NCBI GenBank assembly: GCA_935421135.1
Contig: OW285197.1
Location: 4,273,350 to 4,337,349 of the forward strand
Reading direction: 5' to 3'
Length of the DNA: 64,000 bases
From: Bugulina stolonifera
Lineage: Eukaryota; Bryozoa; Gymnolaemata; Cheilostomatida; Bugulidae
Made by a program: the position numbers and the translations under genes. The notes under the pieces are model-generated. The model ran no database searches. It had not been told where the DNA came from and saw only the letters and a program-made list of their open reading frames with translations. Below, piece by piece: positions 7,864 to 59,545 of the stretch. How positions within the stretch are numbered: position 1 is the first letter of the stretch; each line of letters starts with the position of its first letter.

Positions 7864-9050
7864 GGTATCGACGAAAATGAGTGTAGTTGTCAACCAATGA
7901 GATGCCAGTTTAGCAATATAAAAGTTGTACTGTAGCTCTTTGCATGGTGCCACCTTTCTTCTCAGCACATGCGCTAAAATTTATAATAATTTATTTATAC
8001 TGATAAAGTAGCAATAATTTCAGTGGTCTTATATTTTTCATTTTTCTTTCCAAGTATTTCGATGCCAGTCCTGGTATGAACGGCAGAGGATACTTCGACT
8101 AGTACCAAAATTTCTCGAATAAAAATCACAAATATTTTGTGGTATGCTGATACTACACAAGTAGTACTGTCTAGTACTAATTGATATCACACTACTTTGT
8201 GTCATAAGATTCCGCACCACATCGATCTACATATCTTCAACTCTACGTTCTCTACATTCTTCAAGAATAATATGAATTTCCCACCATTACCAATAAACAT
8301 AGTATTGAATATTGGGTAGGTTGTACATGTATGTCTGTACCGAGTCTATACAAATCAGTCTGTGCTGCATTCATAGTATTCATGTACACATGAATATCAT
8401 AGTCCATTAGTACATTGCACATGACTTGTACATGTACATGACCTGTGCATGACTTGTACATGACCTGTGCATGACCTGTACATGACCTGTACAAGACCTG
8501 CACATGACCTGTACATGACCTGTACAATGTACACTTCTCCTTTTCAACTTTTTCAAACTATGTTTTATCCCTCTTGTTCTTTGCAAATTTAAATTATTGC
8601 TAACAACAGCAGAATCGTACTAGTATATTACTAAAATCTATGTATAACAACATGCACAAATATTGTTGTTGTACAAATATTGTTGTTGTTGTACAATGTG
8701 CCAATGTGATTAAAATGTGTTGATTGAAATAATTGTATTAGAAGTTGTCTTCCTTCTCACCTGATCTGATCCAAGAAGAAGATCTTCCTCCTAGGCTGCA
8801 GTGAGCTGTTAGTAGTACCTCTGAGCTGTTAGTGCTACTAGGCTGATCTCTGTGTACTGATATAGCTGTGATAGTAGTAGTAGTGACAGTGTAGCTGTGA
8901 TACAGCTACTCAACTCTCTATCAGGTGCCGGATTATTTGTATTCTTGGTCATTGGTTTATTGATTGTAGAGCTTTACAATGCTTTACAAATGTGCACAAT
9001 GGAAAACTGAATAGCAGGGTCATGTTATAATGCATGTCATGTTAAAATAT
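7864..9050. other. 5' flank of the orphan gene and intergenic DNA
   Basis: Apart from the satellite at about 8418-8530, this is AT-rich sequence with short trinucleotide runs (TTG near 8660-8690, TAG near 8870). No supported gene. Confidence 0.5.
8418..8530. repeat. Short minisatellite of TGTACATGACC units
   Basis: About ten imperfect 10-11 bp units of the type GACCTGTACAT/GACCTGTGCAT in tandem. Confidence 0.85.
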
Positions 9051-10804: not shown

Positions 10805-11867
10805 TTTTAACCATCTTCGGTTTTATTCAGTTTTGAAAACACAGCAAACAAAAATAATCCAATTGAAGGGTAAATCAAGGCAAAAAGCATTAATTTTTGG
10901 TGCTATGGCGTTATTTTATTGAACATTTGTGATATTTGTTGGCATTGTGACTTTTGTCGTTGAACCTTTGTGACATTTGTCGGCGCTGTGACATTTGTCG
11001 AAAAATTGTTGTGACGTTTGTCGGTGTTGTGACGTTTGTCGAAAAATTGTTGTGACGTTTGTCGGTGTTGTGACATTTGTCGGTGCACTTTTGTGACGTT
11101 TGTCGGTGTTGTGATGCTTGTCAAAAAATTGTTGTGACGTTTGTCGGTGTTGTGACAGTTGTGACGTTTGTCGTCGCTACACATGTCTAACCATACACTG
11201 ATAATTACATATCAATTACATACCTGTATATAGCATTACTGAGTCATTATACTGCTTTTATACCCATGTAAAGAGGCCCGACCTCTTAGAAATACTTGAT
11301 ATTTATTTTGCATATGATCTAGATGATTTTAAGCATCTTTTGTCAAACCCGACCTATTTTGAGTCGGCCATCGGGCTTCCGGCCGCCATGTTGTTGCGCA
11401 ATTTCTGGGCGACCCTACGTCGGCTTTTTTACCGGAACTACCTCCGGAAGTTCTATTACTATATAAAGGGCATTGTTTTTATGTTTGTTGTCTCAGTTCA
11501 TGCTTGGGTCTCAATAAAGACACTTCTATACTTATATATAGAGACTTTCACTTCGTAGATAGGTCATTCTAGTTGTTAAGGTCCTCGACCTTGCAACATG
11601 AACTGCCTACCAGGTCGGATCACTCTCTTTCTCAGTATAGCAAACAAGCATTGACTCGGGACCAAATGGGTCGTCTTTGGTAGTTCTTTGACTACTGATA
11701 CCGATTAATCTTTCATGTAATAAGAAGGCCTAGCACCACTCATAGGCACTTCATTTTGGACTCGGGAGTCGTCTTAGGACGACCGCACCAAAACCCACAA
11801 ACCATTACAATCTTATCAATTGTACTCATCAATACCAGTGGGGCTATATCACAGTTGGGTCCAAGTC

Positions 11868-18700: not shown

Positions 18701-21288
18701 GACAACCGGCTAAGTAGCCAAATTGATATTTTCATACCTATTAATAACTCCACAATTTAGATGTACATACCTTTCTTGTTAATGTATGTGTAGAGTCAAA
18801 GGTCAAAAGTATAAAAATCACTCAAAATAGACTAACTGGTCACATACAGTTTATCCCATTCAACTGATTCTACATGTATATAAAATTTTGACAGCCATTT
18901 TATGTACCATACTTGATAATCTTACCTCGCATGTAATATATGGCACCATTCCATCCAATAGCAAGTTCATTTTGTGGTAATACTAACAGCGAGGTTACTG
19001 AAACCACATCGCAACTGTTATTTTTAACTCCTGATAGCTGTAGGGTGCCTTGCTCACAGTAAATGTATGTTTTGGAGTTCGCCCTATTTACAAATGACAA
19101 CACTCCATTTTGAATTTCGACATCTAGTCCCTGTTCAACCCTGATACGTGTGTTAAGGCGAAGAGATGATTTATTTCCCGTGTAGTAGTAAAAGACTTTA
19201 AACTTTTCAGGTGTCCTAGTCAGGAGAGACTCAAATTTTAGAGTTTTAACACTAGCCTTAAGAATATCAACGAGCCTGATTCTCATTTCATTTTCAAGGA
19301 CATAAAACTTTTCCTTGTTACTGCCTCTTGCAGCCAATGAAATTATTCTGCCAAATTTGGCAGTGTTCAAACTCCCATCTTGCTTGCCTTTTGAAGTGCA
19401 GTTTCCTGTCAGCCATTGAATGTAGCTCCTATAGCGGTCATTGCTATGTCGTCCAAAAAGACAATGAGTATTTCTGTAATGTAAAACTGTTAAAGATCTA
19501 GTCAGTTGGTGGAAGTCTTCCACCTTCAAGCGACTCTTATTGGTAATCTGTTGAACACTTTTGTCTTTTGTCACGTTATCCCAAATCCCACTCATTTTAC
19601 TTGATTTAAATCTAAATCCAGAAGAATCCAGATATAGAAGATCATTCTTGTCTTTTAAATAAATCTCAATTCGCTTTACCTCTCCCCCAATACTCGTAAC
19701 TCTTTCCAGTTTCCTCAAGTCATAATACCTATGATATACACTTGTACATATGCAATAAATGCAATAGTTTACATGTGTATGTAGATAGAAACTATACTGT
19801 TCATCCACGTTGTCTTCCATGTATGACATGATGTGACGAAAAAATGTGGCATATTCGGATATTGCACCATGCAAGCTTTTTAAATAGCAATCTGCAGCAA
19901 TAATAGTTTATTTTATTCAATAACGTTGTGCGCCTTATTTTTATAAGGAACTTGAGCTATCAGCTCACCAAGTTCTCACCACTGCCCTTCAATCACTGCC
20001 TATTATTAACCCAGCATGAAGCAGTGCTACAAGAAGGGGTGTTGCCATATTTGCTTGCCTTATCAAATGATCCATGGTGTACATTTTTACATACATCTAT
20101 GAAGCATTGCAGTTGTATTATCTTAAATATTGAATAAATATAAAGTACACATTGACCAACATGTACATGTAAAATAATAGGTTCTGGATTTACCTGTAAG
20201 TACGAGATGCTCTGTCGATTTTAGTTGAGGTGTTGGACTCGCTCACCACAATCTATGTTTAGAAAAAACATTTGAAATACATTTTACTAGTTTTCATTCA
20301 CAGATGTTACACTGTTTACACAGCATATACATGTATACATGTATATGTGTTACAATTTTACTTTGCTGCAAGAGATATATATAAGCATATTGCTAGACCA
20401 GACCTTCCGTTCCCCAAATATTATAGTGGAATTTATTGCATGCAGGCCGTCCAAAATGATTCATTGGCGTAGTTTTTGGTTTAGAAAACAAGCTACAGCA
20501 AGTAGTTAACCCTTGGTAGACCGATTTCGATAATATCGGGATTGGAATTACTAAGCATTCTGCTCAGTACTCTAGCTTGATAGTACATTACAGTTAATAT
20601 ATAAAATTACATGTACATGTACAATTACTGTACACACAGGCTGTATGTATGCTATGTGGAGCAAAAACCAGAACTAAGATACATGTAACTCCAGCAGTAG
20701 TGGAATTATCAATGTTTAGTTTAAAATATGAAAAATGACTGTGCCTTTATAATTACCATTTTGAAGATATTTTGTTTATAAAAACATACTGTGTACATTG
20801 TATTACAAGTATTCTGGGGAATTTTACTTTTACATCATACGTATAAGCTATATCACTATAAACACCACACCATTGCTGGAAGCCACTTGATCATGCTAAC
20901 TGTTACACAATGCTAAAATATCTCGCACAATATCCTGCAAAATATCCTACAAAACCACTCTATCCATTGCACCATGCTAACACCACACTAACCACCTAAA
21001 CACCACAGTAATCACTACGTCCTAGTAACCGCCAATATAATAATAATAAATAATAGATATTATACTGGTACATTTAATTGTTCTTGGTATTCTGTGACAC
21101 AATACTGCGCACCTGTGCTTGCAGCGATTAATCTCACGACCGTGTTACCTGAACTACATGTACATGTAAAATGTAAATGTATGCAATATAAGACTATGAC
21201 ATACATAAATACATGTATATAGTACAATATGCTCATATCAAATCATGTGACTTACTCCAACCAGTGCTGTTAGTATCATCAAATCCAT
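12655..21288 (-). CDS. R1: NHL-like type I membrane receptor with two membrane-proximal modules
   Basis: Exons in order: 21288-21256 (MDLMILTALVG, signal peptide), 20252-20194, 19728-18926 (803 nt), 17506-17335, 16858-16689, 15950-15800, 15638-15466, 14815-14650 (TM, VILTVVLLVVIPVAILIL), 13717-13508, and a tentative last exon 12737-12655. The first nine encode about 645 residues. The big exon carries GNCTSKGKQDGS, AKFGRIISLA, KFYVLENEMRIRLVDI, which resembles the NHL-repeat pattern of extracellular beta-propellers (G.C...G..DG, then A.F..I, then YV.....IR.V). Four ~50-57-residue Cys-containing exons form two tandem copies of a two-exon module. The tail holds a basic QRGIRIKKRREGDE stretch and a Ser/Thr-rich region. 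Exon phases all close except from 13508 to 12737 (phase 2 into a phase-1 start), so a small exon is missing or another 3' exon is used. Ligand and function unknown. Paralogues: R2 and R3. Confidence 0.8.
12831..12962. mobile_element. 132-bp foldback/MITE-like hairpin in an R1 intron
   Basis: Two arms of about 55 bp (ATCGGACAGCAACC ... CATCCATCC and its near-complement) separated by roughly 20 bp. The outer boundary TTATCGG/CCGATAA is compatible with a TA target duplication. Confidence 0.75.
18140..18331 (-). mobile_element. tRNA-derived SINE in an R1 intron
   Basis: On the minus strand from 18331: an A box TGGCTCAGTGGG, then about 30 bp on a B box GGTTCGAATCC, the internal Pol III promoter of a tRNA head. 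About 140 bp of non-tRNA body follows. The tail boundary is uncertain. It differs in body sequence from the SINE at 29.6 and 46.5 kb. Confidence 0.75.
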
Positions 21289-22409: not shown

Positions 22410-25400
22410 CTGCAATACAAACAACAGAAAAATACAACCCAAGGCATATGTACATGTAGAGTTACTAATATCTAGCATTCTACTTGTATAGATGTTCCTC
22501 ATCATTGCATGAATAAAATAACTATTGCATAATTTTACCTGGACATTATTTTATCTTACAACGAACAAAATTCATGTTGAAACATTTTGCATTGTCTTTA
22601 GAATTTGCATAGAACATTGATTACAAGTTTCAAGTTGAAACCCCCACTGATAGAAAATTGTGGCATGCAAATACAACACAAACAGCATGCAGTTACAAAA
22701 CTTAGTTTGCGGTATTATTTAACGGCTACTTGTGCGATCATTGTCATGTACTATTTGAAACGAGAGTTATGATCTAACGGTGCACTTCTGCAATTTATGG
22801 TATTACTTTTATAAATTGAGAAATCTTTTGAATTTAAAATGTCAAGCTTAAATAACCCACAGATTTAGCATTCAAAATTAATTCGAAAATAAGTCAAGAC
22901 CTTTCGGTTACGACACGGCTGTCGTTACACACAAGCGTTTGAAGATAGCTAATTCAGAAAATATTAATTTTAACTTTAACTGACAAAGTACTTATACGAC
23001 AAAGTAATTACATTAATTCCCATGAGTGTCCATTACTTTACATGAGCACAGGATATACAACACGTATTGAACATGCAGAGAGCAGTAGCTGAATATAGGC
23101 ATGAGGTCACATTAGTCGGAGAGGAAAATGGATGGAAGGGAAAAGCTAAATTTTGGTTTACAAGATATTGAAAATTTCATTTCTTCAATATAGATTTTAG
23201 GCTATGAATAGGGGAAATCCTGTCCTATATTCAGCTACGAACAACCAAGTACATGATACCACATGTATATAAATACTCATTAGCCACAAAACCGAATGTT
23301 AAACTAAATATATGAAGGAGGCCTGCTAAGCTAAGCCAGGCAGCGAATGGGCAAAGTACCCTGGGTAGAATATTGCTTCTTACATAATGCTTCTAAATGG
23401 ATGGCTTTGGTGCCTGCTGCTGAAGCTCCGCCCTTTCCTAATATTGAATATATAACAGTGTTTAAATTCTGATACAGAAGTATCTATGGATAGAATGATC
23501 AACCATTGGTCTACTTTGGTTGATAGATACACATCAAGTGATGTGACATACCCATCACGATATTCAACATGAAAGCCATGTTAGTATTAGTCAAATCACC
23601 CAAAATGCATCAGCGAGATTGAATTTAATTTATTCTTTCCCTGTAACTGTGAGTAGATTTAAGAGCTTTGCATACTGTTAATACACATAAGCCGTTGTAT
23701 TTACAAATATTTATCTGGTTGCTTCTCTTTTTATTTTTCCATATTAGGTTTTCTACCTTGTGTGCAGTGATGTGTTTGCAGAAAGCAGTGCTATGTGTGA
23801 CCATTAATCATGATACATATACAGTCTACTCTATAAATATAACTAGAGGTCAGACTGGTTATGTATGATCTGTATACTGACCTCTCCAGCTGGGCTGACG
23901 AGTGTGGTGGTCACCTGACTTCCTGTGCCCCAGTTATCTCGCTCATACTCCAGGGCATCGGCGGGTCCCTTGTCCTTAGCGTATACCTATTGGACAACAT
24001 ACAGTGACATAAGACGACTGTTCAGGGATATGGGTGTTAAATTGCAAATATATGAAGTCTAATTTTTATTCATTCACATTGTATTGATTGTTAGTAATAG
24101 GGAAAGAAATTCTGAAAACTTTCCTATAATCTACAAAACCGGCTGAATCAATTTTGGTGGTTTTGAGATTGTATAAGTATTTTCTCGTACCTTCACACTT
24201 CTGTTTTCTCTTGAATTACCAAGTGTCATTCCATCGGGGAAGGTGAACATTGTCATTGCCTTACCATCAACCTAAAGAACACAAATCAAGATGCTGACCT
24301 GGCTGTAACTGAGTCTCCGATTTAGCACAATAATCGGCATCCAATTTCCATAGATAGTTGGTAAATAATTGAGTTCTTGGAACTGCACTAGGCATAATGT
24401 CTGTTCATTTAGGGCTATGTACAGAGTAATTATGGGAAGGTAGGATCTGGACGTGCAACCAACTTCATCAGAGTGACCTTTTTTATCAAAGATTCTGCAT
24501 ATCGAGTTAAGATCTGTGGTTCTGCTTAAATAATTTGGCAAACTCATACATATTGACTACATTATACAATCAGATGCAGCTTTAGACAAATACCTTTCTG
24601 CCGACCTTCCAGCCTCCAATGGTCTCCTCTTTTCTGCCGGTATTCTCTACCTCAATCCAGTTTCCAGCTGGGTCAACCTGAGGGTATAGAATTTCCATAG
24701 TTTTAATGCTTGCCATGTCAATTTAAATAGCACAGTTTAAACTTCTATCAGTTAGCAAAAATCCAAACTGATTTAAAAGTCTAGAACTGCCCTCAGATTT
24801 GAAATAACAGCTATTTGATTAGAACTCTGTAGTGATTTGATTTCTAGTACCAAAACCTTGAATATCAATATGCCATTTGTTTACTAGTGAGGAAGTCATT
24901 ATATTATGCGTGGCTGTAGGAGTCTGGCAGAGACCACATACCTGGCTGATAGCTAGTGGCCCCTTTGCAGATCTTTGGAAAGTAGTTTTCTGAGACATCT
25001 GTCCTGTCATGATTGCTTGCTGACCTAATAATGAAGTTATAATATTGCGTTCAAGTCACAATAACCATATATACATGTATACAGTGCCAAGATCTGAGTA
25101 GCCATTCTGGTAAAGTTGCGACTTTTATTAGTATTAATAACACATCAAAGTGGCAATGTGATATGTGTAAAAGTACTGTGTGGTGTGTAATACAATGTTC
25201 ACTTGACGTCGATATACTGCTAAGCATCATTACTTTTCCATGCGTAATTCACTCTGTTGTTATTATCTGAGTAATCTTTAAAAATCACAGCAAATTCTAA
25301 ATCTAACACGACAAGTTTTAACAACATTTAACGTGTGGCCATACAATGTATACATAGCATGCACATTACAACTCAACATAAATAGCATAGCAAAATCTAA

Positions 25401-28400
25401 AGCAAACTTTTAAATTAGTCCTAAACTTTGGAGTTATGTGCACAATGAATGGTATCGGTAAGACAACTCCAAGTAAAGGCATAATTTAAAAGTAACTAAT
25501 GGTCAGCATTGAAAGCTAGCAAGTTGTTAAAATACAACAAAGTCGTGGGGAGGAGAAGGCACTTACTAGTACAAATAATAATATTCTCTTCATCTTGTCC
25601 TAATATTGTATGAAAGTTGATAAGCAGATTTAACAATATACTAATGTTCGAGTTTGCATTCAATTAACAGTGTTAATGTGAACTGATAACTTTTACAATT
25701 TTTGTTTTACCTGTAGGTATGAAAAAATGTGACAAAATAAATTGCCATAATAATAACTTTTTGAAATAAAAGGAATCTGTTTTCCTAGTAGCTATTGGTC
25801 ACATAATTCAGTAAACATTAATCTAACAGGAAATTGATCGAAATTCAGAAGAATGCTGAGATCATTGAGACAAATGGAAATATGTGAGAATTTATTGGAT
25901 CTGTAATTTTTGCCGGCTCTGTTCGGTGTGACAACCGTTAAGTTTCTCTGCTAAGGAACCATCAGCTATACAGTCATGTATTATTGAAGATTCAACAAAT
26001 TTTGTTCAAAATATTAACAAAAGTTTGAAAAATGACTACATATAATTCAGAAGCATATTATATTGGCATGCAATTTAAACTGAGCGTAAAGCCATTTGAG
26101 TGAGCGCGTTGTTTAGTTACTTGATAATATGCAATCTGCTCAAGCTATAGTCAATTTAAATAATTTAATTTAATTTAAATGCAATTTGTGTGCAACTTTA
26201 ACATTTTTCTGTAAACTACTCTGCTACAAGAAGGGGGCCCACAAAGGGTAAAACCTGTTTACCGAACATGTTATAGTCCTTTGCTGTTTCGGCTTTCTGG
26301 GCACGACTTTCCGTAACAAAATCGTCAACAACAACATTACGCATACTCATCCTAAGAACAAATAAAGCAGTGTCATTGGTTAGTACAGCAAGCAGAATAA
26401 TATAGCACATCAGTCATTAGAGCCACCAGATGGAGCTGTGGGAGTGTAACTTAATAGGACAGTGAGATGGATATGAAGATTAGGATTGAATGAATGTTAT
26501 GCCTCCTGGTGTCTGATAGGTGAAGGATGCAGTTGGGTTATTGGCTTCATTTTTCTGGTCAGGAAAGAAAAACCCGAACCCAAAATTACTACACTAATCT
26601 GAGTAGAGTGATTCAACATAGATATTGTATTAGAAATTTTAAACGGCAGCGTCAAGCAAGGAGTAGCAAGTAAAACTTTGGTTTTACTTGAGACGATAGT
26701 TGTTACCAGGATGCCACTATAAAAAGTGTTGATCCCTTGATAAGAGTTGCATCATGAATCTATGCCCATATAGCCATGTTTTGTGGAGCTAGCAAGCGGT
26801 TATTTTCCCCGGGCCACTTTATAAAGACCTACCGGATGAACCACCAATTGCTAGAGAACCGTGATGGGAGTGTGAGGAGGTGGTCTGATGCTGTGTGGTA
26901 GTTTGAACAGTTTCTACAACTCCGAGCTGTTCACTCAGTTTCATCCTATGACAGTAGGTGATGACAGAAAAGGAATTAACATTTGTGCACAAGCAAAGAA
27001 TAGGTTAGAAATTTAGAGTGAGAGAAAATTAAATACAACTACATCACTACAAATAAAATTTGTACAAAAATGTTATCTTCATCCGGCTGTAATAGATTGA
27101 AGAACCTAGATACGAAGGTTGCCATGAAGATAACATATGTGTACAAATATTGTGCTTCATTGAATCACTGCTAGTACCGGCAGGTTTCTTATTGGTTACT
27201 GGTGCTTCTTGTGGTTTGAACATCATGTCCGAGGCGGATGGACTGCTGGCACTGTCGTTACCATTCATACTTTCCGTAAGCCTATGTAACATGGCAAGCA
27301 ATAATGCATCTTAGTACACACCATGCACCAACCCAAATACATGCAGTGATTTTCTAAACATACAAAGTAGCAAAGATCCTGCAGAAGACGATCTCCTGAT
27401 AGCTCAAACATGAGGGTCACCAGGTAGGACAGAAAGGTCTTCCATCTGCGACATCTCAAATTTTTGTCTAAACAAGACATACAAACTCTAGCCAGCTTGC
27501 CTAGCCGAGCCACACTAGCAGCGTATCTAGCGGGGCTTTACACGCCAACTTTAGCTAAGATATTCCCAAGGTGATCAACCGACAGTCTGACAAGGTTTAA
27601 GAAAGACTCAACAGCATTTTTACTCAGCCACAAACATAGACGCCTGCAAACAAGAACAAAGAGCAATCTCCTTTCTGATATCGTACCATCAAGGGCACCC
27701 ATGTTCATTCCTCCCATGGCTGAAGAGGAAGAAGTCTTAGATGTTGTAGAAGATCTGGACTGTTTGATGGTCATTGATGAAGATGAAGAGTTACCACCCC
27801 CAGATCCAGAATCTAACTCAATGTTAAACGAATAACCGGACCCACCGGCACCTCCTCCTCCTCCTCCAGAACTGTGTCCACTGCTCATAGAGCTCACTGT
27901 ACGTACAGTGGTGGATGACATTTGATTGGCAGCCTGCTCAGCTGCATTCAGCCTATGCATGTCGTAATAAACATTAACTAAAAGGCAATGTTAGTACAAG
28001 AACTAGGGCAACCAACCATCCTGTTATCAATCTCATTGCATGTCATTCCTATAAACAATAATCAGGTCTGAAAATATTGAAAATTGATTCACTCCAACAT
28101 CAGAAGAGAATATATTATAATATTACACAATATCAAACTCATGTGACAGTAGACAGTTAGTATCATCTAGAATCTATACATGTAAACCATAATCCATAAT
28201 CCATAATAAAGAATTTCTAATAATTGATTAGACTATTGAGACATCCCAAAAGCAGAAAGTGTTTGTGTTGGCAAGTTCTATGGTGAAGGAGTTTTCTTCC
28301 CTTTCACGAAATTTGATGGAAGACAACTCCAGGTAGTGATACAATAGCAGGTTATGCTAACAATTTCTATGATATTTAGGGTGATTGTTGACCTGAACAG

Positions 28401-31400
28401 TTCTGCTTCTAGAATACCGGTTAGTAAATAATATTGATGCAAGTGTACATCTAAGAAGTGGTACCATAACAAATGACGTCATTACCTGTTCTCTTCAACT
28501 TCCAGAAGCTTCCTATAAGCAGCAATCTCCAGCTCAAGGGATAGTTTGCTGTCCATTACTGCCTCCATCTCTCGCAGGAGTTTCTCACACTCAGCAGTGA
28601 GTCTGTGAATGTCTGACTCGTATCTAATCTTTTCATCGTCCCAAGCTCTCGTGTCCTAGAACAAGATAAACTTATCGTACTTGGTATCACTTCTTTGAAA
28701 TGCAATCAACCAGAATTTTAATTTAATTCACTTGTATTTTTGCAACAACTTTTGTTGCCATATTATGTCAGCGCTGGAATTTTTACGATTTTGTCAAATG
28801 GTTAAGGTCATTGGAAATGGATGGCCTTTAAGTATTGTTGGCACACAATCTCTCAAAAGTCATCAACTGTTGCTAAAAATAAAATTATATGTCATATGGA
28901 TCTGTTCTCTTACCTCCTCATGTGACCTAAGCAGGTCAGCGTACTGTCTCTCCAGCATAGCATTGCGACTTTCAAGGTCACCTATCTGGTTCCTCATGTC
29001 ATTCACTATGCTCTGCAATCTCTTAGTTTCTGTTACCAGGTGCTCAACCTTGCTGGCATCCTTAGCTTGGCCAGTTCTCACCTCTTGTACCTACATGCAT
29101 GTGGAGACGACATCTGTGAGAAGCTGTTCAGTGAATACAAGCATGGAAGCCTAAACCGTGATTGTATGCATTACAGTAACGCTTAGCGATGTTTATCGTA
29201 CTTATTGTGCTCTTTATTGGGGAAGGAAGGCATGTTTCCCGCAAAGCAATGACTTTATGTTCTGGTAACTCATCTATTTATTTGAATACAGATTGGGTAT
29301 AGACTTGCAGAAAAATGGAGATTTGATTGTGATAACCGAAATATTCGTACCTTCATCTGGTAGTAGCTCTGCATCTGCTGGTTCTGGTGGTCGAGTCTTC
29401 GGTCAAACTCATTCTGTAACTCTCTGATGGCGTTAGACATCTCACTTTCCCAGAACTTTCTGTTGTCTTTGTAAGAGTCTTCACCAATGAGAGCTTGCAG
29501 TTCCTTAATTTCTTGATCATGCAGCTAAAATCAGAATGTTACAATTTTAAATTGATTAGTGGTTAGAATGCTGAACCTTCACGCTGAAGGTTCCAAGTTC
29601 GAATCCCAGTCACTGTGGTGTTAGGAAGAGTATCCAGCCACAATTGGCCCTGTGCCTCGTATACAAATAAAGTAGGCGTTTCCAAACTTTCTGACACCAC
29701 TGTAAGTCCTTGGGGTCATGCAAGTAGCATGGATTCAAGGCAACTCCTCTACCTCTGCCGAAAAAGGTCATGTCATCTGGGCCTTTTCTCATAGGGAGTT
29801 GGCCAGCACTGGCACCTGGTAGTGCAAGCTGCAAGGGCCGGTCAGTTTTTTTAGTGTCAGTGAATTTTTTAGGTGGCTTTTTATTTGTACAGGTAGAAAA
29901 TTATGTTCATCAAAATTCGCGTGATTAGACAACTCCCAATTAAAACAAAACATATTGGACAACTACAAACATTTAATAACAACGCCACTTAGACTCCAAC
30001 TTACTTTGAACTATAAAGCTAACGTTTGTGCATGTACTGCATGTACATGTACATTGTATATCCCGTCGAACCAGTTGAGGTAAACTGTACAACATGCACT
30101 TTATTCATAGTTAATTATTATGTATATATACAGTGTATCTTTATGTACTTACATTCTTTAAGAATTCAATCTCCTCTTGGAGAGCTTGGTTCTGGTTCTC
30201 AAGATCAATATTGTTGAGACGTTCTGCATCACGCTCCTGGAGAATAAACCGAGTTATGCTTTGACTGACATAGTGAGACAACTCCCAATGTTATCCAACA
30301 ACTTCAATGTACCCAGAATTATTTTATTATAGTGAACCAGGTTTATCAATTATATTTTATATTGATGTACATTTACCTGGATAGTTTTGAAGAGTTCCTC
30401 TTGCATACGCTTGTTCTCATTAGCCTCGTGTTCCAGGTCCTGCTCCAGACCGTTCACTCGTCTCCTCAGCATGTTCAGCTCTGACTCATAGTCTGCCAGC
30501 TGCTGATTCTGGCGGTTGATGGTGTCCTTGTCTTGCTGCCTCAGCCTTTCCATGTCATCTAGTCTAATGAGAGGAATATACCATGCTGTTCATATTTGTT
30601 CAGAATTATAGGGACTATGAACCTATATAGAACTTAACTAAACTATGCAGTTAGTTGTAATGGAATGCTTAGACTGTAGAGTAAGTAGAATAATATTTTA
30701 ACAACCAGCGACAGTGCAATACTAATATGCTAGGTTCAACCAACCAGTCCTCTGCTAATCTCCAATTACACAAACCTGCCTATTAGCACATGGACTTCTA
30801 TAATTCTATTTCCCCAGCTGTGCACACTAGCTAGGCCTCTGCAGCTATAGACCAACTACATGTATTATGTCAACACGGTGATTTCAATCCATTCCCTACT
30901 AGTATAGACTAGCACCCACTAGTCCTCACTAGTCCCCCACTAGCTTTTAAACTAGTGCCCTACACTATTAATTCACATCAGTCCCCCATTGGTCTCCACT
31001 AGTCCTCCATTAGTCCCCACTAGTCCTCACCCATGTGCTACTTACCTTCTTTTGTACTCAGCCAGCTGGTCTTCAAGATTCTGAATCTTGAGCTCAACTC
31101 TGGCCTTTTCCTTCTCTGACTCATTGTATAGATCTCTGGCCTCCTTCAGTTCTGCCTCAAACATCTGTTTCACTGCCTCTGTGCCTTTACCTGTATAGTA
31201 ACACTAGTCAATGCAATCATACTGCTAAGATGACTAGCTGTGTATTTAGTAAGGAGTTATCCTTTCAATCAAAGTAAGCAAAGAGAGGACAACTTCAATA
31301 CTGCTAGTTTATTTCCCACTGACATGCATGTACAGCAGATGTAGGTGAAATCACACAATGTGTCACTAGTGTGAATCGTGTTCCCATGAGTCGACTGCCA

Positions 31401-34400
31401 CAGATAGTATCTAAATAGCTGCCCTATGGAATGGCATTCAGATAACTCAATAATACTCAAACCGTACTTCAAATTACAATAGAGAATACTCTGGCTTAAC
31501 ATGTTCGTCAATAAACTGTAATTATATACAGTCATGCGATGCTGCTTCTGACAGCAAACCACTGACTGAATATTGAATTGAAGGTCCTGAGAGAGTATTT
31601 CAAAAGGTTACACTGAATATTTTATAGTCTTATTTCAGACAAGCTTGAATCTTAATCAGCATAAGGAGCGTAGTAGACTGGCGTGCTTACCCCATTTGTT
31701 CTGCAAATCTTTTAGCTTCTGTTCTACGGCCTTGAGTTGAGCCTCCAGAAATCTGTTCTTCTCAATGTAGTTTGCAAACCTGCTGTTCAGGTCCTAGGGG
31801 TATAGAACATGACCTTACACTACCACATAAACAAGGGGGATAACTACCAATTAAATGTGATGTTGTATTATGGACTAGCATTCAATTAGAATGGACCATG
31901 TAATTCTACTAGCAATGAAAATACTGTACTTCAAGGAATAGCATCTGTACTCATGAGCTGAGCCTCTATGTAACGTGCATGTAGTCCAATTCTTGCAGAC
32001 AAGCAGGTAACTGCTTAGCTTACCTGCATGTTTTTCTTCTCAGACATTCGACCATCTACGATGTTCTTCACGCCAGCCTCAGCAATGGCTCCCGTGTTTC
32101 CCAGAGCATTGGCCTGTTAAGAATAGTGGATAGCGCATTTCATCACATGTTTATGTTTCGATGGACTGTGTTCTACTGCCATCGCCCAACAGACAGTACA
32201 TGTACATGTATAACATTGTCATTTAACTTTTAGGTATGCACTTACTGTAGATCAACACTTCTGTTTATAAATTGATGCAATTTAAGCCTCAGTAGTCATG
32301 GAATTCCTCAGCATGTGAAACATAAACTTGGAGTATTGAAATTGTGCAAGGATGAATAACTCCAAAGCATAGAAACTTACAGATGTTCCGTAGCTCATAG
32401 TAACTGTTCTGGTTACGTTTCCGGAGCCTCTGTTTAGTCCCATCATACCTGCTCCGGGCATTCCTCCCATGCTAGACCTGTAGCTTGAAGCCCTACTCTT
32501 AGTTACGGGGGTGTAGTTGATGCCCGTAGTGCCCGCAGAGGACTCGTAGGTCCTACAAACAGAAATAAATGTGTAAAATTAGCACAAATAGTCAAATACC
32601 GAATATATTGTGCAATCAAAACTTGATTTTATGATTGTGTCTTCCAAGGAATATTATTTACAGTGTACATTATGCAATACTTTTTTATTCATATTGTAAG
32701 TTATGTAACAAAGCAAGAATAATCTACAAGAACACCCACAGTAATTTTTTTCTTGTGAAATAGAGACTGGCATACTTTACAATTATGAGCTGTTAACATT
32801 TATTCCCAAAGAGTTGCATTGGATTAGCAAAGTTCAAGACCATTGCAATCACATAAGGCAGGCAATTACCTTAGTTGAGTCTGTCTAGCCTAAGAGCAAA
32901 GCTTTATGTCAAAGGTAAGGATACGCAATAGAATGTCTCATTAATCATGATAAATAGGTTTGAGTTTAGGCTATATCAATTCATACTAATACTTATAGAT
33001 AATGTCTGACAATTAACACAGGTATTTACTTGCACACAAAGCAAACAGCCTACATTACTTTTCATCAATAAGTAAGGTTTATGTAACATTTTTTCTATAT
33101 TTGATCTGATAGTTATTTGGGTACAAACAGAGTCAACTATCGTTGTTACGGAATATATTCAATCCCTAGTAGAGTGCAACGTTATCATATATCTGAAGAT
33201 GTGTCAGATTCCACTGTGTTATGTTATATACTGATTGGCCGTGGCATTATGTTCAAACGTTTAGAGGATGAGTAATATATGCCATCGTATTAGTATTTAT
33301 GCATCTTCAGCCCTCCGCAGCTAGCAATGTAACTTGTGTACTGTATGCTGTATCAGACAGAAGGGCTAGTTTGCCAGCATTGCCACAAATCAATAAAAAG
33401 TTACAGACTATTTAGACTCTAAAGCAGTTTTTTATTTTTATGCTAGCTTGTCAATAAATGTGCATGCACATGCACATGTATGTACCAAATGTAGGCCAAG
33501 CAGTAAACTGCAATTATTGCCTCCAAATATATGTACATGTATTAACAGTAGAATATAAACAATTTCAGCTTTGGGGTTATTCTCTCCTACATATTTTCAG
33601 TCACTAGTTACATAAATGGCTACTAAATAGTCTATTCCTATTATCAGCCTGGATTCCACATCTCTCAATATAAACGCCTACACTGTACTAGGTTAACGAC
33701 GCGCTTAGCCGGCGTTTTCACTACCCAAAGCATGCTAGATATTTTTTAGGTGACTACCCTATTGCCTTACGAAGTGTATCAGTGTTTTCCTGCAAGAATG
33801 GATTACAGCTTGCCAGGCTAGTACTCAATACAGCCTACATTGTATCAATCCTTGTCTATCAATAACACTGGACTCCTAAATAGGGGGCATGAAATAACTC
33901 TCCGATCCACTCCTGTCAAACGGTAATATTATTTACTCTTTCAATAATCAAATGTACTGACTGAAAGCTTTCTACTGAAACAAAAAGTTGTATCAAACTT
34001 CACTAAACAAACTGAGGGAAATTAGTCAAGTGCTAACTAATAGCTCTAAAGCAAATAAGGTGATGCTAAGGTCAACTACTCAGCATCGTGGGACAAAAGT
34101 GTGTCGGGAACAGAAGCTAGATCTGTCTACAGGATCATTAGAATAATTACAGAACACAGACATGACTTTGTTACAAGTATTAGGCCTATTTTACTTTTCA
34201 TTACATTATTTTTTTTCTAATTTACACGAGTGCTGCGCACTTAGGTTATAATAGGTATAACTCTAGAGAATTAAAAATAAAAGTTTTGTCTATCATCCAC
34301 GTGATTGGATAAAGCTATTTATCTCCACGGCGTACTTTACAATCTCATTAACACCTGTGTTTACAGAACTTGTGAGGATATCAGTTGCTAATATGGATAG

Positions 34401-37400
34401 TAATCCCATTCATTAAATAAATGCAAATGAATTCCTTCTTTGTAGCAATCTGTTGCCATGGAGACCTTTGACAGGAAGTTGGTTAAAATAATTTCATGTA
34501 GAGACTGCCAAGTCTAAATACTGGCTAAATAGTTACTATCACAGAGTTCAGTACTAAGAGTGCAGCATCTACAGCTCTGTTATACATGTACATGTACACG
34601 GACTGCATAATTGAGTGACTAATTTAACCTTTTTAAAATGACTGTGTAAATTACAATTTTATAGAAACAAAGCCATGTTAAGCAGCTTAGGCTTTGCACT
34701 ATGCCATAGGAATGCAGGTTGCCGAAAACAGTTTATATATATTAGTTTTGCTATTTACATATTGTACAATGTACATGTACATGAATTTGTTTATCAAGTT
34801 GAAATTAAAGACTCAAAGCGAGATGCGAATAGTAAAGTTTTAAATTTCACATTGACATCTCCATAGAAATGCGATATTATATTTATTTTTCACAAAGACT
34901 TGTTTGCAAGACACAGTTTATGACATCATTGATAACAGTCTTGAGCAGTTGGTATTGTTTACCTAACTTTATAAACTGAAATACAAATTTATGTTGTGAA
35001 TGCATAACGCTAACAACTTAATGTTAAGAAGAATTAAAAAATTAATTGAAAAATGTTTGATTATCTATACATGTACTGCTATCCTTATCACTGTCAGTTG
35101 ACCATGTAAAATCCAAAGAATTGTGTTTAATTTTATAGGTTAGCTGGAGGTAAACTGAAGGTCAACTAGAGGTCAACTAGGGGTCATGTGGAGGTCAACA
35201 AAGGAGTCGACTGAAGGTCAAATGAAGGTACACCAAACAGATTTACCTGTTACATAAATCAATTGGCTACTCAGACATTAGCAATAACCTGTTCAGATAA
35301 TATTTTGCCTCACAACAGCAAATAAATACAAGATGGACATATATTGTGATTCTTGGAAAGCTGTGGATGTTTGTCAGCATGAAATATTTCCCTAGCAACA
35401 GGGCAGCATGTGTAGTAGATCTACCTAGCGACAGGTCAGCGTGTAGGCCTGTGTATAAAGCCAAAGTCTCTGAATAATGAATAACTAACAACGTTTTGCA
35501 TTATTTCCATCTTTTACTTCATGAAATGAGTAGATAATACTAAAAATCAATTGCATTATCATTGGATGATCTCCCGGGAACAAAAATCAACTAATCAAAT
35601 GAATAGAGTGTTAACAATGTTGTAAAAATTCAATATTTCAGATCTACTTTGCACTGTCTAGTTATGTATCTTTTGGGAAAACTTAGCAACAGACGAGATG
35701 CAAAATCTATTTTAAAAATGGGTGGATACATGTTTTGTCATTGTGCACTATTTTTTAAATATTAATGCTAGAAGACCTCTGTGCATGGAGTCAGTAGTGA
35801 TTGATCTCTACACTTGTATATACTTCGCTTTTTTTTAATTCGCTCTCAGTCTCAATTATATTCAAACTGTTAACTATAACCAAATAGATACCAGTCTCTA
35901 CCGTGGCCCACAAGAACGTCAGAACTATTTTTCGACAAATAATATTTGAAAATTATTTTTTGCTTTCCAATACTATTTTTTGCTTTTAAATATAACTTTT
36001 GAAATAATTATTTTCATGTCGCTCTGTGCCAAGGCATATAGTAAGTCTCAAATATTCCCTATATTTTCAGACCCCTGCTACAAGGATTATATTCACTACA
36101 CTAATAATGAGGTCATCCTCGCAGCAGAGGTCGCTGATGTCACAGGATGTAGAAAGGATATATGCCAGATTAGGCTGAAACAATTACCATAATGCATTGC
36201 ATGTCGAAATACCAGCACAGATTATTTTAGTAACACTTCACGACTCAATGTGTACTTGTGCGATAAAAATATTTTGTTTGCATAAAATATTATCTAAATT
36301 CTTGGCTTGCTGCTCCTAACACATTCTTTACAAGCTTAGAAATTCTTGTAAACTCTTCAATAATATGAATTACATGAGTTGTGTGTATCATTTGAGTAGA
36401 ATCTGTGGAACTGTATCCCAAAGAGGGTTATCTAGTGCCACTTTACTAACGTCTAGTGGTGTACTTCATAGCATGTATAGCCCAGTAGAGATGACACTTG
36501 ACTGGTATGTTATGATGACTAGGTGCTGACATGGCATCTATGACATTAGTGCTGTCTCACACTTAGCATAAGATATTATTTTGGTTCTGGAATGTACTCA
36601 AGACAGCTTATACTGTTACACCACATATGTATGCATACCAATTAATGATACCTCTCATGTAATGTACAATCTGCACATGTAAGTTCAGTTAGACAACTTA
36701 CAGTCATGTGGTAGCATGTTCTCCTCAAGATAATACACTTACAATGAACATAATTATGAACAATATAATAATACATAATACAATATAACTGTAACTAATC
36801 AACATCTATAACATTGGCCAGCTATACTAACTGTTCATTCTATTTAAAATATAATACATATCTGTGCACAACTCATATAACTACATGATTGTATATAAAC
36901 TGTCTGTATATTTTGTGTGCTCTATGTTATCACTGACTACAAATTTTCTACATAATCCACATGCAATGTCAGTATAGTGATTGTTCTAAGAATTATATGT
37001 CGTCTGACACAGAGCCCATGTGGTCCGATGACTTCATAAAAACGTAAAATTTAGCTGTTTGGTTACATTGTATAGGCCTACATACTCCAAGTCATAGTAT
37101 AGAAATTTCCAACTAAAGCGAGCGAATCGCTTGGCACTCTTATGTGAGTTAAAAATAATATATATTCCATAGTCTAACATTTAAGGACTAAAATTATGGA
37201 TTTACTTCAAAGAATTTTAAATATTTCAAAAAACAAGTTATATTAATAGAAAAACTTACTGGATTGGCGCATTATTTGAAGAGTCTTTAGATGATTGGTT
37301 GAAGTATTTTGCCATTTCAAAGGATAAGTTAACCGACTAGAAGTCTGTCAGAGCACGAGAGAATGAGAGTGTTGGATGGGTGTGCCAAGTAAAGAGCCGG

Positions 37401-43400: not shown

Positions 43401-44027
43401 AGGTGAAGAGTCAGTCACACTGTATTTATGTAATACAGCTATTCTACTGTGAGAAATGCAGTCACACATCAAGTAGTTACTCAAAAACTAACAGTAATAT
43501 GGACAGTGTTTACTACCCATGCATACATGTACACGTTTATTCTAATGATATTCATTGCAGGAATTGAGGTGAAAATTATTAGAGTATGTTACTTGGTTAC
43601 CTAGCAACTGATTCACTTATCTGGTTATATGCAGCAGTAGGATAATAAAAAGCATGACTACTACTATGTATGTGTTTATAGTAATTACAATTTTTTACCA
43701 AAGTAAACCAAGAAGATGGAATGTACTTTTATGCATGGTCTACATATGCACAGTAGAGAGATTATCGCTTGCCATGTTTTTGTTATACCAGAATGCCACA
43801 TTAATACAACACGCAGACAATGCAATTTATATCTAGTAAAATGCATGTACACGTAGAAATGGTTTTTCTTTTTAAATATGACTAATTGTACAGTGAATTG
43901 GATTTTCAAATTATTCCTTTCTATCATACTACAAAAATAGATGCAAGTTGATGCATTAGTGTTGGTGCGTTTGGTTTGCTTACCTCTGGGTCTTAGTAGT
44001 GACGGTAGATTGCTGAGTGGACGACAT
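22368..44027 (-). CDS. Cytoplasmic-type intermediate filament protein with lamin tail domain
   Basis: Head: first exon 44027-43984 or 37315-37260, then 32552-32381 and 32113-32024. Rod: 31793-31691 (NSRFANYIEKNRFLEAQL, coil 1A start), 31190-31046, 30563-30377, 30236-30153, 29524-29351, 29090-28914, 28655-28486 (LELEIAAYRKLLEVEEN, the rod-end signature). One of four linker exons: 27952-27687, 27281-27178, 26945-26833 or 26351-26263. LTD: 25024-24942 (KTTFQRSAKGPLAIS), 24677-24594 (GNWIEVENTGRKEETIGGWK), 24271-24191, 23986-23882 (NWGTGSQVTTTLVSPAGE). Last exon 23437-23393 or 22409-22368. Phases close throughout. The rod is about 350 residues, the length found in lamins and protostome cytoplasmic IFs rather than the ~310 of vertebrate cytoplasmic IFs. 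No CaaX box ends either C-terminus and I see no classical nuclear signal, so a cytoplasmic filament role is inferred. The longest isoform is about 670 residues. Confidence 0.95.
23393..23437 (-). CDS. IF alternative last coding exon, ERAELQQQAPKPSI end
   Basis: Acceptor CCAATATTAG-type tract, then phase-0 codons ERAELQQQAPKPSI and stop. Joined to ...SPAGE it gives GEERAELQQQ, again preserving the conserved GEERA step. It either ends the transcript in this region or is an included stop-bearing cassette upstream of the distal exon. Confidence 0.7.
   Translation of the reverse strand, partial: ERAELQQQAPKPSI
26263..26351 (-). CDS. IF mutually exclusive linker exon 4 (89 nt)
   Basis: Starts phase 2 (AG|G) with R-MSMRNVVVDDFVTESR, ends phase 1 before GTAAAC. 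It encodes 29 residues that are acidic and helix-like, unlike the Ser/Gly-rich alternative exon 1. Confidence 0.75.
26833..26945 (-). CDS. IF mutually exclusive linker exon 3 (113 nt)
   Basis: Starts phase 2 with R-MKLSEQLGVVETV, ends phase 1 before GTAGGT. Gln/Thr/His-rich linker of 37 residues (QTTTQHQTTSSHSHHG). Confidence 0.8.
27178..27281 (-). CDS. IF mutually exclusive linker exon 2 (104 nt)
   Basis: Starts phase 2 with R-LTESMNGNDSASS, ends phase 1 (GCC G) before GTACTA. 34 residues, containing KPQEAPVTNKKPA. Confidence 0.8.
27687..27952 (-). CDS. IF mutually exclusive linker exon 1 (266 nt)
   Basis: Starts phase 2 with R-LNAAEQAANQMSSTTVR, ends phase 1 (GAT G) before GTACGA. 88 residues, very Gly/Ser-rich, like the tails of keratin-type and some invertebrate IFs. 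It is the exon nearest the rod. Confidence 0.85.
29554..29836 (+). mobile_element. tRNA-derived SINE, family 2, copy in an IF intron
   Basis: Begins in a truncated A-box region (TTAGTGGTTAGAATGCTGAA) followed by a B box AGTTCGAATCCC and a body with GTCATGTCATCTGGGCC and GGGAGTTGGCCAGCACTGG. It matches the reverse complement of 46.48-46.74 kb over its whole length. It lies antisense to the IF gene, starting about 30 bp upstream of the acceptor of the 29524-29351 exon. Confidence 0.8.
30895..31030. repeat. Intronic minisatellite of CACTAGTCC units
   Basis: Irregular tandem units of the form CACTAGTCCTC/CACTAGTCCCC, about 10-13 bp, in the IF intron just 3' of the 31190-31046 exon. Confidence 0.75.
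32553..37259. other. Large IF intron (head exon to proximal first exon)
   Basis: No coding exon seen. It holds a short GGTCAACTAG-type direct repeat at about 35145-35215 and scattered TGTACATGTACA palindromes. Confidence 0.5.
37260..37315 (-). CDS. IF proximal alternative first coding exon
   Basis: ATG at 37315, MAKYFNQSSKDSSNNAPI, donor CCA|GTAAGT, phase 2. This is the same phase as the distal first exon, so either can splice to the head exon at 32552. The start context is GAAATGG. Confidence 0.85.
37500..37520 (-). promoter_or_regulatory. Possible core promoter for the proximal IF first exon
   Basis: On the minus strand GATTGGTTATATACAG: an inverted CCAAT box directly followed by a TATA-like TTATATA, about 190 nt upstream of the ATG at 37315. 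This is a pattern match only. Confidence 0.4.
37521..43983. other. Large IF intron (proximal to distal first exon)
   Basis: About 6.5 kb without a supported exon. Holds short open frames only, and a copy of the GGGAGTTGTC motif near 38900. The likely place for promoter-specific regulatory DNA. Confidence 0.5.
43984..44027 (-). CDS. IF distal alternative first coding exon
   Basis: ATG at 44027, MSSTQQSTVTTKTQ, donor CAGAG|GTAAGC, phase 2. It replaces MAKYFNQ... to give a Ser/Thr-rich extreme N-terminus. A TATAAAC element lies on the minus strand at about 44159-44165, some 135 nt upstream. Confidence 0.8.
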
Positions 44028-59000: not shown

Positions 59001-59545
59001 GAACAGTAAAACAGTGCCCTTTATATAGTATAAGGACTTCCGGCCGACATGACGTCGGGAAAAGACGACGTGTGGTCGTCCGGAAGTTGCGCAACAAGAT
59101 GGCCGCCGGAAGCCCGACGGCCGACCCAAAATAGGTCGGGTTCTACAAAAGTTGCTTATAATGGTCCAATTCATGTACAAAATGAATATCAATGGATTCT
59201 GAGAGGTCGGGCCTCTGTACATGGGTATAAAAGGCATTAAAAGACTTAGAAATAATCATACAATCATATATAACAATATAAGAGTAAAGTACAAGCAGAT
59301 ATATACATGTATGCACGCAATAATGAGTGTCAGATGTAAGATACGACTGGGCGTACCATCACAATATTTACCAATTTAATACTACATGTTGCCGGGCTGC
59401 TTTTATGAATACATTGCAGTGATAATGCTACTGAAATAACATTTTAGAAAATATTGCAGGTAAATTAATTGCTCTCCTCTTCTACATCTATCATATTCCG
59501 TGAATTACATGTACTCACCAACAGCACTATAAGTCGACCAATCAT
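53087..59545 (-). CDS. R2: NHL-like type I membrane receptor, short form
   Basis: Exons: 59545-59519 (MIGRLIVLL), 57948-57881, 57000-56099 (902 nt), 55574-55397, 55212-55046, 54138-54052, 53564-53441 and 53171-53087. They total 1638 nt, 545 residues, with all phases consistent. Order: signal peptide; NHL-like ectodomain (YLGNCTAAGTTDGG, GRLIAIVDV, RMYVLQTDGAIREVNV) with several NxS/T glycosylation sites; one two-exon Cys-containing module (YCGASLGW..., STYFINKETGECEVNATV); a Ser/Thr/Pro stalk (STPRTETSQTDMPTSRQPS); TM (GAIMTILSITAVIVGSILL); and a short basic tail with QLSDHTIYNVD. The big exon is homologous to that of R1 and the module to R1's first pair. Two LTR copies sit in intron 1. Function unknown; a cell-surface receptor or adhesion molecule is inferred. 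Confidence 0.85.
53878..54034. repeat. TAATA pentanucleotide microsatellite
   Basis: About 30 nearly perfect TAATA units in the R2 intron, starting about 12 bp beyond the donor of the 54138-54052 exon. Confidence 0.95.
58067..58700 (-). mobile_element. LTR copy c (abutting copy d)
   Basis: Read on the minus strand it ends in CATTACA at 58067. It shares the GTGCCTATGAGTGGTGCTAG block (complement) with copies a and b, making it the older, more diverged type. Its own start is not recognisable and it runs directly into copy d. ATAT precedes it on the plus strand. Confidence 0.7.
58701..59363 (-). mobile_element. Solo LTR copy d in R2 intron 1
   Basis: 663 bp, TGTGATGG start (at 59363) and CCATTACA end, with TATATAAAGGGC and AATAAAGACA internally. 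Nearly identical to copy e but in inverted orientation. Flanks GTAT (58697-58700) and ATAT (59364-59367) differ by one base. Confidence 0.85.

What the first reader, a model, noticed from the sequence alone, without database searches (positions are those of the whole stretch)
26263..27952. Four frame-enforced mutually exclusive exons linking IF rod and tail
Four consecutive exons (266, 104, 113, 89 nt) all start with R-[LM] at phase 2 and end at phase 1; every length is 2 modulo 3. The rod exon leaves phase 2 and the LTD exon needs phase 1, so in-frame protein requires exactly one of them (all four would restore only the downstream frame). The choices differ sharply: Gly/Ser-rich, KKPA-containing, Gln/Thr/His-rich, or acidic. 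One gene could make four filament types differing only in the rod-tail linker.
Basis: partly seen in the sequence, partly recalled or inferred. Interest (0 to 1): 0.85.

Follow-up and report, generated by a model that had tools for sequence, protein, structure and literature searches.

The report
Four-way exon switch in filament gene
A gene for a cell-skeleton filament protein, probably from a bryozoan (moss animal), carries four alternative exons for the piece joining its rod to its tail; the reading frame allows only one per full-length protein, and a named bryozoan's gene catalogue lists four matching proteins, so the finding looks real, although the general trick is known.

Summary
The minus strand carries a complete cytoplasmic intermediate-filament (IF) gene with a lamin-tail domain (LTD). 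Exons A (266 nt), B (104), C (113) and D (89) lie between the last rod exon and the first LTD exon; each enters in phase 2 with Arg-Leu/Met and leaves in phase 1. Shuffles of the interval never gave four such exons (0 of 1000). Each single choice encodes a full protein (609-668 aa); the 12 other outcomes (11 multi-exon, 1 skip) stop 265-642 nt before the last junction.

The closest relatives include the bryozoan Watersipora subatra: NCBI isoforms X1, X5, X6 and X7 share rod and LTD, differ in the linker, and match A, B, C and D, C-X6 most weakly. The mutually exclusive reading is supported, though no RNA-seq was counted and isoforms X2-X4 were not seen.

Corrections: linker D is not acidic (5 acidic, 5 basic); KKPA is not conserved; the likelier first coding exon is 44027-43984.

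Molluscs and an annelid also swap linkers here, so this is a four-way version of a wider splice hub. A docking RNA structure was not supported.

The parts
43984..44027 (-). likely first coding exon (MSSTQQSTVTTKTQ + AG|)
   Evidence: matches the start of W. subatra and P0001 proteins (MS..S.T.KT.R)
37260..37315 (-). weaker alternative first coding exon (MAKYFNQ...), probably not used or a second promoter
   Evidence: no counterpart in the proteins
32381..32552 (-). head exon e2
32024..32113 (-). head/coil 1A exon e3
31691..31793 (-). rod exon e4
31046..31190 (-). rod exon e5
30377..30563 (-). rod exon e6
30153..30236 (-). rod exon e7
29351..29524 (-). rod exon e8
28914..29090 (-). rod exon e9
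28486..28655 (-). last rod exon e10, ends AYRKLLEVEEN + AG| (phase 2)
27687..27952 (-). alternative linker exon A (Gly/Ser-rich, 90 aa with split codons); counterpart of W. subatra X1
27178..27281 (-). alternative linker exon B (36 aa, SDMMF motif); counterpart of W. subatra X5 and of P0001
26833..26945 (-). alternative linker exon C (39 aa, Gln/Thr/His-rich); counterpart of W. subatra X6 (weakest match) and like the single linker of P0006/P0007
26263..26351 (-). alternative linker exon D (31 aa, AKDYNMFG motif); counterpart of W. subatra X7
24942..25024 (-). first constant tail exon L1, enters in phase 1 (|GT CAG CAA)
24594..24677 (-). LTD exon L2
24191..24271 (-). LTD exon L3
23882..23986 (-). 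LTD exon L4
22368..22409 (-). last coding exon L5 (DKATHIQKTTYAQ stop)
27055..27151 (-). hairpin in the B-C intron, arms of 28 nt, 89% complementary; role unknown
   Evidence: energy z -5.8 against 200 shuffles; no other copy of that arm in the window within 3 mismatches

Best explanation
This is a four-exon mutually exclusive cluster in a cytoplasmic IF gene, probably of a bryozoan. The pre-mRNA joins the last rod exon to exactly one of A, B, C or D and that exon to the first tail exon, giving four proteins with the same head, rod and LTD and a different flexible linker of 31 to 90 residues. Shown from sequence: because every exon is a class 2-1 exon, any transcript with none or with two or more of them is frameshifted or, for all four, stopped in B. 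Inferred: such transcripts are removed by nonsense-mediated decay, a tissue- or stage-specific factor chooses the exon, and the linker tunes the distance and contacts between the filament core and the exposed LTD. Inferred on modest evidence: C and D descend from an ancestral single linker exon by tandem duplication, while A and B have diverged too far to tell or were recruited.
For: Exact phases, in-frame single products and early stops in 12 of 12 other outcomes. Chance test 0 of 1000 and coding signal. W. subatra isoforms X1/X5/X6/X7, on contigs of the same listed length, with identical compared rod (150 aa) and LTD (60 aa) stretches and no difference outside the linker in the alignment. 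Linker matches exceed shuffles: A-X1 0 of 500, B-X5 0 of 500, B-P0001 0 of 500, C-X6 1 of 500, D-X7 0 of 500. In X1 the residue before QQAIM is Ser instead of Gly, as a phase-1 split codon (A|GT) would give. D resembles X6's C-type linker (0 of 500, z 4.7) and C resembles the linkers of P0006 and P0007 (0 of 500 each). AlphaFold2 models of X7 and X1 put the variable piece in the disordered stretch between the rod helix and the LTD strands (448-484 and 457-533 with pLDDT below 50). Same-position linker swaps in Haliotis, Patella, Mytilus, Owenia and unnamed transcripts.
Against: No junction reads were counted and the window's species has no transcript here. W. subatra isoforms are automated models, and X2-X4 were not seen. 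tblastn with relatives recovers D (E 6e-6, X7) and 20 residues of A (E 0.005, X1), but B only at E 1.5 (P0001) and C not at all. C's raw score against X1 (47) is as high as against X6 (46); only the shuffle test separates them (9 against 1 of 500). Some other cross-matches also beat shuffles (A-X5 0 of 500, z 6.5, probably Gly runs). Exon A's acceptor scores -0.6, below all 14 constitutive acceptors of the gene (lowest -0.1), and a nearer upstream TTTTAG would read Ser-stop (by eye). The out-of-frame stops are what chance would give and are no sign of selection. Introns between the exons (405, 232, 481 nt) are long enough for exons to be joined.
Confidence: 0.87

Rival explanations
1. The exons are alternatives, but some (A or B most likely) are rarely spliced or make no functional protein; one linker does nearly all the work and the rest are tolerated by-products.
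For: Linkers diverge faster than the rod: 18 of 36 (B), 16 of 34 (C) and 18 of 31 (D) aligned residues identical, 44 of 72 for A, against 371 of 440 in the rod part. A has the weakest acceptor of the gene and all four donors score below the constitutive mean (5.5, 6.1, 7.5, 4.4 against 7.8, sd 2.4).
Against: All four are open, in phase and recognisable in a second species, with short motifs conserved (SDMMF in B, AKDYNMFG in D), and each has its own annotated isoform. The acceptors of B, C and D (6.4, 3.4, 5.8) lie within the constitutive range.
Confidence: 0.2
2. Exon choice is set by competing long-range RNA pairings (docking and selector sequences) as in insect Dscam.
For: Clusters elsewhere use this mechanism (PMC6071210, introduction). 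A 30-nt window in the intron before A (28035-28006) pairs with the four other introns at -20.5 kcal/mol or better; 2 of 28 shuffles do as well. A strong hairpin lies in the B-C intron.
Against: The test is not significant for the upstream intron and negative for the downstream one (27 of 28 shuffles do as well). No second bryozoan genome was available to test conservation.
Confidence: 0.12
3. Two-exon or zero-exon splicing, or read-through into a terminal form, is itself used, to make tailless IF proteins or to lower expression through decay, rather than being an error.
For: Every multi-exon or skip product keeps the entire rod and loses the LTD (477-542 aa). A scan listed eight possible terminal exons in the interval, among them read-through of B and of D. 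Patella and Haliotis cracherodii have annotated isoforms that end soon after the rod without an LTD.
Against: The seven closest proteins returned (P0001-P0007) all have the LTD, though truncated forms could be hidden in 90% clusters. The mollusc LTD-less forms have their own terminal sequences.
Confidence: 0.1
4. The four exons are not alternatives of one gene but remnants or predictions from separate paralogous genes, and the in-phase layout is coincidence.
For: W. subatra has at least one further IF protein (P0006, 73% identical to the query, same listed contig length) with a single C-like linker.
Against: There is one rod and one LTD in the window; tblastn with six relatives finds no second copy with E below 0.1. 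The four W. subatra isoforms show no difference outside the linker.
Confidence: 0.02

Closest known systems
Watersipora subatra IF isoforms X1, X5, X6, X7 (NCBI annotation; named '60/70 kDa neurofilament protein-like' or 'intermediate filament protein A-like')
   Same: Same rod, same LTD, four alternative linkers matching A-D; 77-82% identity over the whole isoform.
   Different: Automated models only; I found no paper that describes them (searches, in a library without most subscription journals). Exon order and introns were not available.
[quoted passage not shown] 1991; the title was seen in the reference list of PMC9132205; content recalled)
   Same: Lophotrochozoan lamin-like IF gene with several products.
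   Different: As recalled, isoforms differ by neurofilament-type tails; a frame-enforced choice among four short linkers before a shared LTD is not what I recall.
Mollusc and annelid IF isoforms with swapped rod-tail linkers (Haliotis rufescens X1/X2/X3, Patella vulgata X1/X3, Mytilus trossulus X2/X4, Owenia fusiformis P0035/P0037)
   Same: Same rod end and same LTD start, different linker between.
   Different: Two or three linkers seen per species, some also with LTD-less ends; Owenia also varies a rod segment; exon structure not available here.
Mutually exclusive exon clusters such as Dscam and FGFR2 IIIb/IIIc (PMC6071210, introduction read; FGFR2 named in its reference list)
   Same: One exon out of a tandem set; decay of transcripts with two or more exons is a proposed contributor.
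   Different: No convincing docking structure here. [quoted passage not shown] here four exons of length 2 modulo 3 still fail in every combination because B has a stop in the shifted frame.
Lophotrochozoan lamins with alternatively spliced C-termini (PMC10125929, passages seen)
   Same: IF-family tails diversified by splicing in cephalopods and annelids.
   Different: Nuclear lamins, and the choice concerns the C-terminal end, not the rod-LTD linker.

Membership tests
Cytoplasmic intermediate filament protein, lophotrochozoan (long coil 1B, LTD) type | Filament rod domain | tested here: met
   PF00038 E 3.8e-48, 165.2 bits, cut-off 40
Cytoplasmic intermediate filament protein, lophotrochozoan (long coil 1B, LTD) type | Lamin tail domain after the rod | tested here: met
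   PF00932 42.1 bits, cut-off 34.3; lamin tail chains in the PDB match; strands in the models of the W. subatra proteins
Cytoplasmic intermediate filament protein, lophotrochozoan (long coil 1B, LTD) type | About 42 extra residues in coil 1B relative to vimentin | tested here: met
   the two vimentin alignment blocks are offset by about 42 residues: query 209 with 208, query 246 with 203
Nuclear lamin | C-terminal CaaX box | tested here: not met
   protein ends KTTYAQ
Nuclear lamin | Basic nuclear localisation signal between rod and LTD | tested here: inconclusive
   by eye only B has KKP, absent in the W. subatra and P0001 B-type linkers; no predictor was run
Mutually exclusive exon cluster | Adjacent exons of the same phase class whose single inclusion keeps the frame | tested here: met
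Mutually exclusive exon cluster | Multiple inclusion and skipping give no full-length product | tested here: met
   12 of 12 outcomes stopped early
Mutually exclusive exon cluster | Transcripts each carry exactly one exon | tested here: inconclusive
   4 of 4 W. subatra isoforms seen and P0001 carry one linker; X2-X4 not seen, no reads counted
Mutually exclusive exon cluster | Exons homologous to one another by tandem duplication (common, not obligatory) | tested here: inconclusive
   D resembles the C-type linker of X6 (0 of 500 shuffles), but C against X7 does not (372 of 500); A and B show no convincing kinship with C or D
Dscam-type docking/selector cluster | A common docking site complementary to a selector by each exon | tested here: inconclusive
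   2 of 28 (upstream intron) and 27 of 28 (downstream intron) shuffles reach the observed value, so not supported; no phylogenetic test possible

The most novel reading that the evidence does not exclude
The rod-tail junction of lophotrochozoan IF genes is an ancient splicing hub at which lineages keep several interchangeable linkers, and in bryozoans it has grown to a conserved four-way switch kept exclusive not by RNA docking or short introns but by exon phase plus a stop that closes the all-four loophole, so that one gene sets the spacing and stickiness of filaments cell type by cell type.
Probability: 0.4. Interest if true: 0.68.

Novelty: new variant of a known kind. Interest (0 to 1): 0.55.

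Why it matters
Intermediate filaments vary widely between cell types, usually by using different genes. A single gene that swaps only the linker between an unchanged rod and an unchanged tail domain is a natural experiment on what that linker does, a part usually treated as passive and disordered. [quoted passage not shown] Linker swaps in molluscs, an annelid and bryozoans suggest a common theme for which my searches found no description, and which existing RNA-seq could test.

Tried and rejected
Docking/selector pairing: tested against 28 shuffles, not supported. Weak splice sites as a mark of regulation: of the alternative acceptors only A's is weak; donors are on the low side but within range. 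An earlier scan scored training sites against themselves and overstated the contrast; I use the leave-one-out values. That scan, at its loose threshold, listed B, C, D and one further candidate (25784-25711, 74 nt, RKTDSFYF...), while A fell below its acceptor threshold; the further candidate has Lys, not Leu/Met, after Arg and no relative seen, and I set it aside. The same scan listed eight possible terminal exons (acceptors 28277, 27643, 27395, 27281, 27105, 26505, 26351, 25784); I did not pursue them, and they are not excluded. A further piece between C and D (26554-26480) was read by eye: it is open to a stop in a phase that fits neither neighbour and is not in that list; dropped. First exon 37315-37260: replaced by 44027-43984 after comparison with relatives; the searches were run with the earlier first exon. 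Splicing-factor motif counts in the interval: small excesses only (TACTAAC 4 against 0.97, TGCATG 4 against 1.83), not pursued. Rfam: no match at gathering scores in the window. A second protein search with all four linkers plus LTD gave no new hit like the bryozoan group (best new one P0121, 42% identity). Protein searches list only the best 120 (386 hits, 794; the 118 were all listed). No paper on this cluster was found in searches; searches looked for squid and snail precedents and 33 for the general mechanism; most subscription journals are missing from the library. For pairs of proteins with the same rod and LTD, 200 of 269 fetched proteins could be parsed; 49 pairs passed, but these include 6 pairs among the W. 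subatra isoforms, simple insertions (Tubulanus, part of Mytilus), long inserts (Magallana), near-identical linkers and cross-species pairs, so the number is not a count of independent switches. Owenia was found and is not among the 49 because its rod also differs.

Full report
What is there. The window's minus strand holds one complete cytoplasmic intermediate-filament gene: head and rod in exons e1-e10, four linker exons A-D, and five exons L1-L5 for the tail. The protein matches the Filament rod (PF00038, E 3.8e-48) and the Lamin Tail Domain (PF00932, 42.1 bits, cut-off 34.3), and its vimentin alignment shows an insertion of about 42 residues in coil 1B, as in lamins and lophotrochozoan IFs (recalled). 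It ends KTTYAQ without a CaaX box. Comparison with relatives shows that the first coding exon is most likely 44027-43984 (MSSTQQSTVTTKTQR), because W. subatra and P0001 begin with a similar peptide; an ATG exon at 37315-37260 also splices in frame but has no counterpart there. The searches used that earlier version.

The observation. Exons A, B, C and D have exactly the stated coordinates and lengths. The last rod exon ends ...LLEVEEN-AG|, and each linker exon supplies G plus a Leu or Met codon, completing R-[LM]; each ends in G, which with |GT of L1 makes Gly. In the 3461-nt interval exactly four acceptors meet the combined conditions and they are these four; 1000 dinucleotide-preserving shuffles of the interval gave a mean of 0.143 and at most 2 (the length bound of 85 nt was chosen knowing D). 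Codon log-odds trained on the other exons are 0.36, 0.25, 0.14 and 0.28 in the claimed frame and -1.00 to 0.06 in the other frames of the same exons; 2000 intron windows have mean -0.90, sd 0.32 and maximum 0.08, with the caveat that those introns were also the background of the score.

Frame logic. With the orthology-supported first exon, single inclusion gives proteins of 668 (A), 614 (B), 617 (C) and 609 (D) residues. The other outcomes are six pairs, four triples, all four, and none; 12 of 12 stop early, 265-642 nt before the last exon junction. C and D begin GATGA, so joining them after another linker exon, which ends in G, gives GGA TGA at once; B joined after A stops four codons past the junction codon. 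The all-four transcript, which would restore the frame for the LTD, is stopped by B. Such stops are expected by chance in shifted frames and I do not read them as selected. By the usual exon-junction rule, which is recalled knowledge, these transcripts would be decay substrates.

Independent support. The closest relatives in a 5.8-billion-protein collection are two unnamed sequences and five proteins of the bryozoan Watersipora subatra (P0001-P0007). NCBI isoforms X1, X5, X6 and X7 show no difference outside the linker in the alignment, and are identical over the last 150 rod residues and first 60 LTD residues compared by script. Linker by linker, A matches X1 (44 of 72 aligned residues), B matches X5 (18 of 36), C matches X6 (16 of 34) and D matches X7 (18 of 31), against 371 of 440 in the rod part and 113 of 130 in the LTD part. 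Against 500 shuffles each, A-X1, B-X5 and D-X7 are never reached and C-X6 once. C-X6 is the weakest link: C's raw score against X1 (47, reached by 9 of 500) is no lower than against X6 (46); the assignment also rests on the similar ending (LAIGG, LAITGG) and on elimination. A-X5 also beats all shuffles (z 6.5), probably from Gly runs. Translated searches of the window find D with X7 (E 6e-6) and 20 residues of A with X1 (E 0.005), B only at E 1.5 with P0001, and C not at all. In X1 the residue before QQAIM is Ser, not Gly, which is what a phase-1 split codon ending in A would give. P0001, from a 2923-base contig of an unnamed JGI source that encodes 654 residues and so is presumably a transcript, has one B-type linker. 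The W. subatra genome note reports RNA-seq from one adult specimen (PMC12902671, passages), but the annotation it describes is Ensembl's; I did not see what supports NCBI's models.

Limits. P0004 (X1) stands for a cluster of four sequences and I did not see X2-X4. No reads were counted. The host genome of the window could not be searched because that tool did not complete. The species of the window is not known; that it is a bryozoan is inferred from W. subatra being the closest named relative.

What the linker does. AlphaFold2 models of the W. subatra X7 and X1 proteins, each on an alignment of 24 sequences, show a rod helix broken once, then a disordered stretch (residues 448-484 in X7, 457-533 in X1, pLDDT below 50), then the LTD strands (pTM only 0.27, so only the local picture is used). 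The choice therefore changes a flexible tether of about 31 to 90 residues. Compositions differ: A is Gly/Ser rich (18 Gly, 32 Ser+Thr of 90), C has 4 Gln, 4 His and 13 Ser+Thr of 39, and B and D are balanced in charge (4 and 4; 5 and 5). Short conserved pieces (SDMMF in B, AKDYNMFG in D) suggest binding motifs, which is inference.

How exclusivity is achieved. Introns of 405, 232 and 481 nt between the exons speak against simple crowding, and the exons are flanked by AG and GT. A docking-site test found nothing convincing: for the intron before A, 2 of 28 shuffles do as well, and for the intron before L1, 27 of 28. A strong hairpin in the B-C intron (arms of 28 nt, energy z -5.8) has no other copy of its arm in the window within 3 mismatches and is unexplained. 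I therefore favour regulated choice by a trans-acting factor with frame and decay as the safeguard; the first half is inference. [quoted passage not shown] this cluster is a counterexample in principle.

Wider picture. Among proteins listed by three searches, other lophotrochozoans show linker replacement at the same place: Haliotis rufescens X1, X2 and X3, Patella vulgata X1 and X3 (with X5 and X8 ending without an LTD), Mytilus trossulus X2 and X4, unnamed pairs P0015/P0069 and P0079/P0087, and Owenia P0035/P0037. The commonest linker begins R-[VI]-GL-[KR]; several of the alternatives do not. W. subatra P0006 has one C-like linker. D resembles X6's C-type linker (0 of 500 shuffles), so C and D may be duplicates of an ancestral linker, but C against X7 gives no signal (372 of 500); A and B show no convincing kinship. 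Squid neurofilaments are the known precedent: the title of Szaro et al. 1991 was seen in a reference list, its content is recalled.

Verdict. It is a new, four-way variant of a known kind of splicing switch, at a junction that seems to be a splicing hub in lophotrochozoan IF genes.

Noticed in passing
window 27055-27151 (minus-strand gene, B-C intron): Strong hairpin, 28-nt arms 89% complementary with 41 nt between, folding energy z -5.8; could be a splicing element or a relic of a small mobile element.
   Followed up: partly
window 27980-27978: A TTTTAG acceptor-like site 25 nt upstream of exon A's acceptor (by eye); using it would read Ser-stop, so exon A depends on skipping the nearer AG.
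   Followed up: no
window 58693-59369 (-), 60736-61407 (+), 62685-63234 (+): Three copies, 98-99% alike, of a 550-670 nt repeat in both orientations, each with an ORF of 116-119 aa; an ORF at 11205-11558 looks related by eye. Probably a recent mobile or repeat family.
   Followed up: partly
window 18900-19907 (-) and 56052-57023 (-): Two long ORFs (335 and 323 aa) that by eye share a GNCT..G..DG motif; no Pfam match at E 0.01.
   Followed up: partly
window 6853-7980 (-): 375-aa ORF that by eye looks like a multi-pass membrane protein; no Pfam match at E 0.01.
   Followed up: partly
proteins P0035 and P0037 (Owenia fusiformis): Besides the linker they differ in a rod segment equivalent to exon e9 here, which suggests a second alternative exon pair inside the coiled coil (by eye).
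   Followed up: no
proteins P0264, P0266 (Patella vulgata) and P0265 (Haliotis cracherodii): Annotated isoforms that end soon after the rod with no LTD, so the same junction may also choose tail or no tail in gastropods.
   Followed up: no
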